64,000 bases of DNA from a virus: positions 1-64,000 of IMG/VR virus record IMGVR_UViG_3300010412_000002; one strand, 5' to 3'. Of the stretch, positions 8,219-40,438 are shown one piece after another (positions within the stretch are counted from its first letter, which is position 1; the number at the start of each line of letters is the position of its first letter). The notes under the pieces were generated by a model. It saw nothing but the letters and a program-made list of their open reading frames with translations, did not search any database and was not told where the DNA came from. The translations under genes and the position numbers were made by a program.

Positions 8219-8792
8219 CTACGTCAAATTTAGGACTGTTATCTTGGCGATCTTCCCATAGAAGAAAGTCGCGATCACGTAGCCAACGTAGCGAATTTTT
8301 CATATACGTTAGCCTATTTTCACTTATAGAAGACATTTTAACTTCTTCTAGCTGCTTCTCCAATCCTCTAATAATATCTGATACTGAATACCCTTCAGAA
8401 ATAATATTAGCGAATTCAACCTTGCAGCGTTTTTTGTTATCCTTTAGGGATCTGGTGCCTGGAAAATGATTAACTTTATCCGTAGCCGGAAATACTTTCC
8501 AGAATTTTTCAAAATCTTCCTCTAGTTGGATATCTATTGGAAGAGATGATTCAGTGTCAATAATTGATGAGATGTATTGTCTGCCTTTATTGGTAAGACT
8601 ACTTGCCTCATCAATATATCCACTAAGTTGCAGTTCAGTTCGAATTTTTTCTGGGAAATACCTAGTAAATCCCTTTCCTTCAAACTTAGATAGTAGGAAC
8701 ATTGCATGTCCCATAGGTAATTCTCCTGCAATCATGTTGATTATATAGTCTTTATGGAGGAGAATTGAATCACTTGTAAGCATTACTCTCAT
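8208..8792 (-). CDS. Putative replication protein linked to helicase
   Basis: A 194-aa protein. Residues 1-75 look like a winged-helix region (LQLSGYIDEASSLTNKGRQY). The second part (FEKFWKVFPATDKVNHFPGTRSL) resembles proteins seen next to DnaB-like helicases in other phages. Tight coupling on both sides (ATGA overlap with the upstream Zn protein, 11-nt overlap with the helicase) supports a shared role, such as helicase loading. I cannot name a family with certainty. Confidence 0.45.
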   Translation of the reverse strand: MRVMLTSDSILLHKDYIINMIAGELPMGHAMFLLSKFEGKGFTRYFPEKIRTELQLSGYIDEASSLTNKGRQYISSIIDTESSLPIDIQLEEDFEKFWKVFPATDKVNHFPGTRSLKDNKKRCKVEFANIISEGYSVSDIIRGLEKQLEEVKMSSISENRLTYMKNSLRWLRDRDFLLWEDRQDNSPKFDVDVI

Positions 8793-20851: not shown

Positions 20852-20921
20852 TCGGTTGGGTGAGATTCGAACTCACACAGTGCATGCGTGGCAAGCATGC
20901 CCACATTCTCCGGCACATCCT
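20852..20921 (-). tRNA. tRNA-Gly(GCC)-like sequence with unpaired 5' acceptor strand
   Basis: Reading the minus strand, a five-pair T-stem GTGAG/CTCAC encloses the loop TTCGAAT, and a five-pair anticodon stem CATGC/GCATG encloses TTGCCAC (anticodon GCC, glycine). The 3' acceptor strand CCAACCG, however, finds no matching CGGTTGG at the 5' side: the expected position is occupied by the end and stop codon of the AAA+ gene. It may be a 5'-truncated or repaired tRNA, or a tRNA-derived element. No CCA is encoded. Confidence 0.45.
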
Positions 20922-33440: not shown

Positions 33441-34025
33441 TCACTGTATTTGCTTCTTTAGAGTGATTGCTGCAGTGGTGTCTACAGGTTCGAAGAGATT
33501 TACTCTCCAACCTCTGTCTGGGCACTGCTTTCCGGTACAGCCCTCATGAAATATGAGATCTGGTTCTGGGAGCAGTTTGTCCAGAGCCCATAACAACGCA
33601 TCTAATGATGCAATTGTCTGTGCTCGGTAGTCTTCGCTACAACTATCACGAATTTCACAGAGTTCTATCCCTACCCCATCCTTGTTGCAATCTTTCCCAG
33701 CATGCCAGGTGATTGCACTTATTGGATAGTGCTGATAGATGGTATCCCCACAAATTGTGAAGTGCCATGACACCTCACGTTTTGTAGTATCCATATAGAT
33801 TCTGTGAAACTCGGCGCCAGCGTACCAATTGTAGTTCTTTGTGCTATGAAGAACCACGTTGGTTTTCTGGCTACCTCCTGAAGTTCGTTCTGATGGCCCT
33901 GGCACATACTTATACACAATTTGTGGTTGTGTATCAATAACAGGGTAATTATATATAACTGTGTCTCGACGCAGAAATGCGACAACACAGCCCATCACGA
34001 ATAGGTAAGCGAATAACCATTTCAT
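33441..34025 (-). CDS. N-acetylmuramoyl-L-alanine amidase (Amidase_2), anchored
   Basis: A 194-aa protein. ATG 34025 gives a short signal-anchor (about 3-18, WLFAYLFVMGCVVAFL). The catalytic domain shows NVVLHSTKN (zinc His), ITWHAG, and IFHEGCTGKQCPDRGW (second zinc His and Cys), matching Amidase_2/PGRP-type enzymes. It should cut the stem peptide from glycan. The start lies only 15 nt after the 3' end of the interrupted tRNA-Phe, so tRNA processing would define this mRNA's 5' end. Confidence 0.85.
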   Translation of the reverse strand: MKWLFAYLFVMGCVVAFLRRDTVIYNYPVIDTQPQIVYKYVPGPSERTSGGSQKTNVVLHSTKNYNWYAGAEFHRIYMDTTKREVSWHFTICGDTIYQHYPISAITWHAGKDCNKDGVGIELCEIRDSCSEDYRAQTIASLDALLWALDKLLPEPDLIFHEGCTGKQCPDRGWRVNLFEPVDTTAAITLKKQIQ

Positions 34026-34039
34026 AAGCAATTGTTTAG

Positions 34040-34216
34040 AGATCGTGGAGGGAATCGAACCCTCGACCACGGTTTTTCACGCCGTTACTCTACCGGACCT
34101 ATGCAGTCTAAAGCACTTAATGTTAGGTAAGCGTCGCTTCCAACCTTTCATTATTAGATGCATAGTAGGAAATAAGTAATCAACTGATTTCCTTAATCAC
34201 TCTGAGCTACACGATC
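34040..34216 (-). tRNA. tRNA-Phe(GAA) interrupted by about 104 nt in the D-loop
   Basis: On the minus strand a canonical 5' part (GATCGTG, TA, GCTCAG; 34216-34202) and a canonical 3' part (GGTAGAGT, anticodon arm ACGGC-GTGAAAA-ACCGT, T-arm GAGGG-TTCGATT-CCCTC, then CACGATC ending at 34041) form a perfect seven-pair acceptor stem and a GCTC/GAGT D-stem once the intervening 34098-34201 is left out. The remaining tRNA would be about 73 nt. Anticodon GAA. Oddities: a C-A mismatch closing the anticodon stem, discriminator T, no encoded CCA. Confidence 0.75.
34098..34201 (-). other. Intron-like structured insertion in tRNA-Phe
   Basis: Boundaries are approximate. On the minus strand the insertion folds into AGGAAAT/ATTTCCT (7 pairs) followed by a domain closed by CTATGCA/TGCATAG (7 pairs) that ends right at the 3' junction and contains a small AGGT...ACCT hairpin. 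It is too short for a complete group I intron and no open frame fits. It could be a reduced intron, an inserted small RNA, or an inactivating insertion. Confidence 0.55.
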
Positions 34217-34238: not shown

Positions 34239-34556
34239 TCAACATCGTTCATGGTATTGTTCATATTTACCTTGACAGGTAAACACGGTTACTGGTCTGA
34301 AAGTGTAGATTACTTCCCACCAAACCAGATTTTTGATCCTTCGGAAGTTTTCCGATACCTCTACACATTCGCACATTGCGTCAAATCTGTCTGTTTCATC
34401 AACTTCAGGATTTGCAGTGTGTGAGATTCGGATTTGGTCTCCCTGTTCATAGATATTCTTGATATCTTTGAGGGTTTCACCCTCAATTTTATCTATGAAC
34501 ATAATCATTTCCATGTTCGTATGTTCCACGTGGATAAAAGCTGCGAACTTTACCAT
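34239..34556 (-). CDS. Hypothetical protein, 105 aa
   Basis: Soluble, beta-rich protein (IRISHTANPEVDETDRFDAM, VIYTFRPVTVFTCQ). Preceded by a hairpin (34585-34651) and followed by the interrupted tRNA. No family recognised. Confidence 0.5.
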   Translation of the reverse strand: MVKFAAFIHVEHTNMEMIMFIDKIEGETLKDIKNIYEQGDQIRISHTANPEVDETDRFDAMCECVEVSENFRRIKNLVWWEVIYTFRPVTVFTCQGKYEQYHERC

Positions 34557-38050: not shown

Positions 38051-38551
38051 ATGCACCAGATGTTATACTCCGTTAAGAAGTGCGCTGATTGCGGAGACAT
38101 AAAACCTTTAAGTGAATTTCACAAAGACTCACGAAAGAAAGACGGAAGACGAAGTAAATGTAAAAATTGCCGAATACACGAAAACGCATCTCAGTATACA
38201 AGGACTACAAAGTACAACAGAACTAAAAAATATAAAAATTTTTCTGAAATTAAATATAAAGATTTAGAACTAAAGCAAAGCCACAAATGTTTAATATGCG
38301 GTAAACGGGAGGCACTAGTAATAGACCACTCACATCAACACGGAGCCGTAAGAGGGTTACTATGTAATAGGTGCAACATAGGCTTAGGTATGTTCTTAGA
38401 TAGTCCTAGAAGATTAATAAATGCGTTATACTATATTGTAGTTAAGGAAGTATGGCCACCTTTGCGCAAAAATTTACTGGTCGAGTTAAAAAAGTTTAAA
38501 AAAAGTTCTCAAAATATTTGGAATTTCGCCGAAAAAGTTGTATCTTTGTAG
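38051..38551 (+). CDS. Endonuclease VII-like HNH endonuclease
   Basis: A 166-aa protein with two CxxC pairs (CADC, CKNC) near the N-terminus and a C-terminal ENDOVII motif: CLICG ... LVIDHSH, then GAVRGLLCNRCNIGLGMF and a D-x-P-R-x-L-I stretch. This is the recombination endonuclease VII family (treble-clef HNH), cutting branched DNA or acting as a free-standing homing endonuclease. It is AT-rich compared with flanks and stands alone before the internal promoter, which would fit recent insertion. Confidence 0.8.
   Translation: MHQMLYSVKKCADCGDIKPLSEFHKDSRKKDGRRSKCKNCRIHENASQYTRTTKYNRTKKYKNFSEIKYKDLELKQSHKCLICGKREALVIDHSHQHGAVRGLLCNRCNIGLGMFLDSPRRLINALYYIVVKEVWPPLRKNLLVELKKFKKSSQNIWNFAEKVVSL
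38517..38548 (+). promoter_or_regulatory. Bacteroidota-type sigma-70 promoter
   Basis: TTTG (38517-38520), a spacer of exactly 20 nt, then TATCTTTG (38541-38548), matching the -33 TTTG/-7 TAnnTTTG consensus. Transcription would begin near 38555, about 10 nt before the ATG at 38566. It overlaps the end of the endonuclease gene. Confidence 0.75.
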
Positions 38552-40189: not shown

Positions 40190-40438
40190 ATGATTATCTA
40201 TATGGACTACGAGCCAATTATCGAACATTTTACTGGAAAAGACCCCATGGGTTGGCTCGATGATTTTTATCCTGAACTTGAGTTTAATTTAGAAGAACAC
40301 AATGTTTTAGCGATTGATGGGGATGATGACGATGTTATTAGCTTTGCTAATCATATGACAGAAGTAACATGGGCATTTGAGGATATAGAACTATCCTTTC
40401 CGCTGATTCACCAAAATTATGATAAATTACCTTTTTAA
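40190..40438 (+). CDS. Small acidic protein, 82 aa
   Basis: Acidic throughout (AIDGDDDDVISFA), aromatic C-terminus. The stop overlaps the next ATG (TAATG). An anti-host or DNA-mimic role is conceivable but not shown. Confidence 0.5.
   Translation: MIIYMDYEPIIEHFTGKDPMGWLDDFYPELEFNLEEHNVLAIDGDDDDVISFANHMTEVTWAFEDIELSFPLIHQNYDKLPF

What the first reader, a model, noticed from the sequence alone, without database searches (positions are those of the whole stretch)
34040..34216. tRNA-Phe interrupted in the D-loop by about 104 nt of structured RNA
The two flanks give a perfect acceptor stem (GATCGTG/CACGATC), the standard TAGCTCAG start, a D-stem and a normal T-arm only if 34098-34201 is left out. 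Known bacterial and phage tRNA introns are group I introns of over 200 nt and usually sit in the anticodon arm. This one is far shorter, in the D-loop, and folds into its own domain closed exactly at the 3' junction (CTATGCA/TGCATAG). It could be a minimal self-splicing or protein-spliced intron, a new tRNA-embedded small RNA, or a disabling insertion.
Basis: partly seen in the sequence, partly recalled or inferred. Interest (0 to 1): 0.85.

Follow-up and report, generated by a model that had tools for sequence, protein, structure and literature searches.

The report
Phage tRNA-Phe carrying a D-loop insert
A bacterial virus carries a phenylalanine-tRNA-like gene that is complete at both ends but has about 104 extra, well-folded bases in one loop; it is probably a composite tRNA-like RNA that keeps the extra domain rather than splicing it out, and such structural oddity is very rare in bacterial tRNAs.

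Summary
On the minus strand, 34216-34041 reads as a tRNA-Phe(GAA) with a 7/7 bp acceptor stem, 4/4 D-stem, 5/5 T-stem and a consensus T-loop, interrupted between R15 and G18G19 of the D-loop by 104-107 nt. ARAGORN finds no tRNA in the contig until the insert is left out, then calls tRNA-Phe(gaa). A split-tRNA scan finds this locus alone in the 106.6-kb genome and none in 150 Markov genomes. The insert is more stable than its shuffles (z -3.25), and the D-stem closes around it (pair probability 0.77, against 0.08 with shuffled inserts).

No splicing system was identified: no Rfam intron match, no archaeal-type exon-intron helix, no RtcB or T4-type RNA ligase. A73, a strict Phe identity base, is U, and C31.A39 is mismatched, so ordinary Phe decoding is doubtful. 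No copy of the insert and no empty site was found. Relatives (Crassvirales-like) carry other odd tRNA-like RNAs: minihelices without D or anticodon arms (covariation-supported) and two tRNAs expanded elsewhere.

Best reading: a tRNA-like RNA retaining an inserted domain at the elbow, matured by RNase P and 3' processing (about 0.43). Decay (0.28) and splicing (0.17) remain open.

The parts
34210..34216 (-). acceptor stem, 5' strand (GATCGTG)
   Evidence: 7/7 pairs with 34041-34047
34202..34209 (-). U8 A9, D-stem 5' strand GCTC, A14 G15
   Evidence: tRNA consensus TAGCTCAG
34095..34201 (-). D-loop insert, 104-107 nt (ends ambiguous by about 3 nt)
   Evidence: z -3.25, P 0.003; D-stem probability 0.77 with it versus 0.08 with shuffled inserts; no Rfam match; no copy elsewhere in the genome
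34167..34193 (-). insert hairpin P1 (AGGAAAU/AUUUCCU)
   Evidence: pair probability 0.82-0.89
34099..34165 (-). insert arm P2 (CUAUGCAUCUAA/UUAGAcUGCAUAG with inner helices)
   Evidence: outer pairs 0.97-1.00
34087..34094 (-). G18 G19 U20 A21 and D-stem 3' strand GAGT
   Evidence: sequence; D-stem probability about 0.77 in full context
34069..34085 (-). anticodon arm, GAA (Phe), with C31.A39 mismatch and G32
   Evidence: ARAGORN on joined flanks calls tRNA-Phe(gaa); stem probability only 0.13-0.17 in the unmodified fold
34048..34064 (-). T-arm GAGGG TTCGATT CCCTC
   Evidence: 5/5 pairs, probability 0.96-1.0; Rfam tRNA/tmRNA partial matches
34041..34047 (-). acceptor stem, 3' strand (CACGATC); N73 at 34040 is U, CCA not encoded
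   Evidence: sequence

Best explanation
It is a composite tRNA-like RNA of about 176 nt: a tRNA-Phe-derived cloverleaf that keeps a self-folding domain of about 104 nt in the variable (alpha) stretch of the D-loop, between R15 and G18G19. Proposed working: it is transcribed within the leftward operon, between a small ORF (34239-34556) and the amidase gene (ATG at 34025). RNase P and the tRNA 3' end enzymes recognise the intact acceptor/T half and cut it out. The inserted domain stays, pointing away from the elbow so that the D-loop/T-loop contact can still form. Its job is then probably not ordinary Phe decoding but that of a tRNA-ended noncoding RNA (protected ends, display of the inserted domain, or punctuation of the amidase transcript). 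Shown: the anatomy, non-randomness, self-contained folding, and other structurally unusual tRNA-like RNAs in relatives. Inferred: transcription, end processing, retention, function.
For: 7/7 acceptor, 4/4 D-stem, 5/5 T-stem and consensus loops survive around the insert. The insert is more stable than its shuffles and lets the D-stem close (0.77 versus 0.08; 1.3% of shuffled inserts do as well); the MFE of the whole RNA is the cloverleaf plus insert arms. The insert sits where tRNA D-loops naturally vary in length. Relatives found by TerL carry other structurally altered tRNA-like RNAs: G020 40255-40391, 137 nt, above the Rfam tRNA cut-off; G020 38233-38396, 164 nt with a 92-nt variable region; 41-43-nt acceptor/T-arm minihelices with compensatory changes at 5 of 12 pairs, one 12 nt after a GOLLD RNA. 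No splicing machinery was recognised.
Against: A single metagenomic contig; no homologous insert found, so no covariation test of this insert. U73, C31.A39 and G32 may be decay. In G020 neither the variable insert nor the whole RNAs are unusually stable (z -0.6 to +0.7), so 'structured expansion' is not a shown rule in the clade. A structured mobile piece that recently landed in the tRNA would look the same. No RNA data.
Confidence: 0.43

Rival explanations
1. Disabled, decaying tRNA gene: a structured piece of DNA landed in the D-loop of a phage tRNA-Phe and the gene is on its way out.
For: A73, one of four strictly conserved Phe identity elements (PMC9976931), is U; C31.A39 mismatch and G32; nearest relative with ordinary tRNAs (G003) has Ile, Arg, Lys and no Phe; the only other T-arm in the genome, at 20872 minus, belongs to a tRNA-Gly-like remnant without a 5' acceptor strand.
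Against: All acceptor, D and T stem pairs, U8, A14, G18G19, U33, GAA and A37 are intact; the insert folds independently far better than chance. No sign of target-site duplication, or of the insert elsewhere in the genome or in phages or plasmids.
Confidence: 0.28
2. A short intron removed by protein-dependent or self-splicing, giving a 72-75-nt tRNA-Phe.
For: Leaving out 104 nt gives an ARAGORN tRNA-Phe; the insert closes with a helix at its 3' edge; short D-loop inserts in tRNAs exist in archaeal genomes (L308-L311, L313, L314, L319, L321-L323) and in two uncultured viral contigs (L295, L296).
Against: No group I or II or other Rfam match. At least 4 contiguous Watson-Crick pairs between the D-stem 5' strand and the insert are seen in 9 of 10 archaeal controls and in L295/L296 but not in the window (3), although this test is weak because shuffled window inserts reach 4 about 60% of the time. 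No RtcB, Rnl2 or T4 Rnl1 family in the genome; only a PNK3P-like phosphatase. Mature tRNA would still lack A73 and have C31.A39.
Confidence: 0.17
3. A cis-acting structured leader or processing element for the downstream amidase gene rather than a free RNA; the tRNA resemblance serves as an RNase P or ribosome-access signal.
For: Only 14 nt separate it from the amidase ATG and 22 nt from the preceding stop, all on one strand.
Against: No homologous leader found; GAA anticodon loop and D/T consensus are unnecessary for a generic leader.
Confidence: 0.08
4. Assembly or chance artefact: 5' and 3' parts are unrelated.
For: Single metagenomic contig.
Against: 0 strict hits in 150 Markov genomes; both halves carry the tRNA consensus and pair 7/7 and 4/4.
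Confidence: 0.04

Closest known systems
Bacterial and phage tRNAs with group I introns
   Same: tRNA gene interrupted by a structured RNA in a bacterial system
   Different: group I introns exceed about 200 nt and sit mostly in the anticodon loop, with an Rfam-detectable core; here about 104 nt, in the D-loop, no match
Archaeal tRNA introns cut at bulge-helix-bulge motifs, including D-loop introns (examples L308-L311, L313, L314, L319, L321-L323)
   Same: short insert, D-loop position
   Different: no exon-intron helix of the archaeal kind seen here, host is a bacterium-infecting Crassvirales-like phage, no ligase found
GOLLD RNA with linked tRNAs (Rfam RF02032; PMC12286853)
   Same: phage tRNA or tRNA-like RNA physically combined with a structured RNA; in relative G037 a GOLLD ends 12 nt before a tRNA-like minihelix
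   Different: GOLLD here is outside the minihelix; the window insert lies inside the tRNA and is not GOLLD
tmRNA
   Same: tRNA-like ends enclosing extra RNA; relatives G007/G009 encode tmRNA, and ARAGORN calls one in phi14:2
   Different: tmRNA has no D-stem or anticodon and carries a tag reading frame; this has both arms and no tag
Bacterial Y RNAs (YrlA), which mimic tRNA
   Same: tRNA mimicry joined to another RNA module (from own knowledge)
   Different: no Rfam match and no TROVE/Ro60 gene in the genome

Membership tests
tRNA (cloverleaf, any) | 7-bp acceptor, D-arm, anticodon arm, T-arm with consensus loops | tested here: met
   met only with the insert set aside; ARAGORN calls tRNA-Phe on joined flanks; contiguous search negative
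functional bacterial tRNA-Phe | identity set G34 A35 A36 plus A73 (PMC9976931) | tested here: not met
   GAA, U20 and U59 present, N73 is U; C31.A39 mismatch
group I intron | conserved catalytic core detected by RF00028 | tested here: not met
   no match at gathering score or at E up to 5
archaeal-type BHB intron | bulge-helix-bulge at the exon-intron junctions | tested here: inconclusive
   strict BHB search finds no motif at the junctions but misses most positive controls; exon-intron helix 3 bp versus at least 4 in 9/10 archaeal controls, with a weak null
protein-spliced intron | splicing endonuclease and RNA ligase available | tested here: inconclusive
   no RtcB, PF09414 or PF09511 in the phage genome; host genome unknown
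tmRNA | tag reading frame, pseudoknots, no anticodon arm | tested here: not met
   Rfam tmRNA matches the T-arm only (18 nt, 12.8 bits)
GOLLD / ROOL | Rfam model match | tested here: not met
YrlA Y RNA | Rfam match and partner TROVE protein | tested here: not met
retained tRNA domain (composite RNA) | mature RNA still contains the insert | not testable with these tools
   needs RNA from infected cells

The most novel reading that the evidence does not exclude
A bacteriophage tRNA with a D-loop domain of about 104 nt that is either removed by an undescribed short-intron splicing reaction in bacteria or permanently displayed from the tRNA elbow as a natural tRNA-scaffolded RNA, within a Crassvirales-like clade that repeatedly strips or expands tRNAs while keeping the acceptor/T half.
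Probability: 0.3. Interest if true: 0.85.

Novelty: new variant of a known kind. Interest (0 to 1): 0.55.

Why it matters
[quoted passage not shown] A phage tRNA with a folded domain in the D-loop would be either a new kind of bacterial tRNA interruption or a natural tRNA scaffold for another RNA. Related phages carry tRNA minihelices and expanded tRNAs that a contiguous tRNA search (ARAGORN) misses, so phage tRNA counts may overlook a class of tRNA-like RNAs.

Tried and rejected
Group I/II intron and any Rfam family: no match. ARAGORN with introns: a different, implausible Ser candidate. Other interrupted tRNA-Phe with 92-120 nt in the D-loop in IMG/VR: 12 matches; those inspected are tandem or adjacent tRNAs plus one coding stretch. 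Empty-site search with the 3' exon: none. Homologous insert in phages, plasmids or fetched relatives: none significant. An apparent resemblance of the insert to the RNA before the minihelix in G043/G020 (AGGTTGG...ACCTAACATTA) was not significant by BLAST and was dropped. A shared origin with the L295/L296 D-loop inserts was dropped: these look like archaeal-type introns. Neighbour-protein search for close relatives: none. Strict BHB scan has no power on controls. TROVE/Y RNA: no gene. A 5' partner for the second T-arm (20872): no convincing one.

Full report
What is there. The window is part of a 106,629-nt IMG/VR record. Its large terminase matches Cellulophaga phage phi14:2 (Crassvirales, Steigviridae) at 33% over 97% of the protein, and the order groEL, terminase, portal is the same. 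On the minus strand 34216-34041 reads GATCGTG TA GCTC AG - insert - (TCC) GGTA GAGT A ACGGC GTGAAAA ACCGT GGTC GAGGG TTCGATT CCCTC CACGATC T. Read around the insert this is a tRNA-Phe(GAA). ARAGORN finds nothing contiguous but calls tRNA-Phe(gaa) for several equivalent joins; the 3' part aligns to annotated phage tRNA-Phe genes.

Is it chance? A scan for T-arm plus matching 5' acceptor strand plus D-start finds this one place in the genome; strict criteria gave no hit in 30 shuffles and none in 150 first-order Markov genomes. Only two T-arms with 5/5 stems exist in the genome: this one and 20872 minus.

The insert. Alone it folds at -28.8 kcal/mol, z -3.25, P 0.003, into hairpin P1 and a long arm P2. 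In the full RNA the D-stem has pair probability 0.77, the acceptor 0.65-0.94 and the T-stem 0.96-1.0; with shuffled inserts the D-stem falls to 0.08 on average and only 1.3% do as well. The anticodon stem is weak (0.13-0.17) because of C31.A39. The insert occupies the alpha stretch of the D-loop, between R15 and G18G19, which varies in length in ordinary tRNAs and points outward (own knowledge), so the tRNA elbow contact could in principle survive.

What it is not. No Rfam match beyond the T-arm. It is not tmRNA (has D and anticodon arms, no tag), not GOLLD or ROOL, not a recognised intron. RtcB, PF09414, PF09511 and TROVE are absent from the genome; Pfam on about 50 window proteins shows no maturase or ligase, only an endonuclease VII gene 4 kb away and a PNK3P-like phosphatase. 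Archaeal D-loop inserts found in the genome scan (L308-L311, L313, L314, L319, L321-L323) and L295/L296 show 4 or more Watson-Crick pairs between the D-stem 5' strand and the insert in all but one case; the window shows 3, but the null is broad, so this is only mild evidence.

Identity. Phe identity requires G34, A35, A36 and A73 (PMC9976931). The window has GAA but U73, plus C31.A39. Ordinary Phe decoding is therefore doubtful even if the insert were removed.

Relatives. No close relative was found: the best TerL is 63% and its contig is too short. In the same genomic place G003 has three ordinary tRNAs. A tRNA-model search over 48 further relatives gave partial and over-long matches. Two tRNAs of G020 (a 42% TerL relative) are expanded: 40255-40391, 137 nt and above the tRNA cut-off, and 38233-38396, 164 nt with a 92-nt variable region; neither is unusually stable. 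More than ten relatives carry minihelices made of acceptor and T-arm only; counted on seven of these, 96% of cells pair, 5 of 12 pairs change on both sides, and slid controls reach at most 55%. In G037 such a minihelix starts 12 nt after a GOLLD RNA. These support a clade-wide tendency to keep the acceptor/T half while altering the rest, but they are not homologues of the window insert, and BLAST found no significant similarity.

Judgement. Retained composite tRNA-like RNA 0.43; decay 0.28; intron 0.17; cis element 0.08; artefact 0.04. The literature held here describes no D-loop interruption in a bacterial or phage tRNA (searches; a negative search is weak evidence). Filed as a new variant of a known kind, interest 0.55, because it rests on one contig with no RNA data.

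Noticed in passing
window 20852-20920 (-): Second tRNA-like piece right after the AAA ATPase stop: Gly(GCC) anticodon arm and perfect T-arm, but no 5' acceptor strand; Rfam tRNA 17.6 bits. Possibly a truncated tRNA or attachment-site remnant.
   Followed up: partly
L232 (G020) 38233-38396 and 40255-40391 of G020: Leu-type tRNAs with a 92-nt variable region, and with extra bases in the anticodon loop and variable arm (possibly anticodon CTA), missed by ARAGORN.
   Followed up: partly
L235, L236, L240-L243, L246, L248, L232-L234: 41-43-nt minihelices (acceptor plus T-arm, AUGGU between, no D or anticodon arm) with compensatory changes, several followed by CTATGCATAAGCATA; upstream lie conserved structured RNAs of about 80 and 240 nt with no Rfam match.
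   Followed up: partly
L246 1292-1687 (+) and L234 395-784 (-): GOLLD RNA in Crassvirales-like relatives (214 and 222 bits), with a tRNA minihelix following it.
   Followed up: partly
L251 1875-1947, 2303-2375, 3156-3228 (-): Three tRNAs of relative G038 (same in G039) with 8-nt anticodon loops; ARAGORN gives four-base anticodons tgaa, aggt, ataa. Possible frameshift-suppressor tRNAs.
   Followed up: no
L244 4031-4500 (phi14:2, NC_021806): ARAGORN calls a 470-nt tmRNA, tag GSSVQKLAMVA, in isolated phage phi14:2, absent from the record's annotation; tmRNA also in G007/G009 with a 30-aa tag (Rfam), and a tmRNA-like 303-nt stretch in G003 near 8767.
   Followed up: partly
L295 579-703 (-), L296 4654-4780 (+): Two viral contigs with similar tRNA-like genes holding both a D-loop insert and an enlarged anticodon loop with a hairpin whose closing pairs change together; each contig also has a tRNA-Pyl(CTA) call. 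Probably archaeal viruses with BHB introns.
   Followed up: partly
L292 10173-10292 (-): Viral tRNA (51 bits) with about 46 extra nt in the anticodon arm.
   Followed up: no
L147 4633-4727, L249 2404-2497, L250 1798-1891; G008: UCA-anticodon tRNAs in relatives G002, G007-G009; G008 open-frame coverage rises from 0.70 to 0.79 if TGA is sense, suggesting TGA recoding.
   Followed up: partly
L146 1119-1452 (-): G003 tRNAs show A.C mismatches in stems (Lys 1-72, Arg 7-66, Ile 50-64), as the window's C31.A39; RNA editing or decay not tested.
   Followed up: no
G000:85863-105902 (+), beyond the window: One open reading frame of 6679 aa at the end of the contig.
   Followed up: no
L251 5194-5255 (-): Pistol ribozyme, 54 bits, in relative G038 near its tRNAs.
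   Followed up: no
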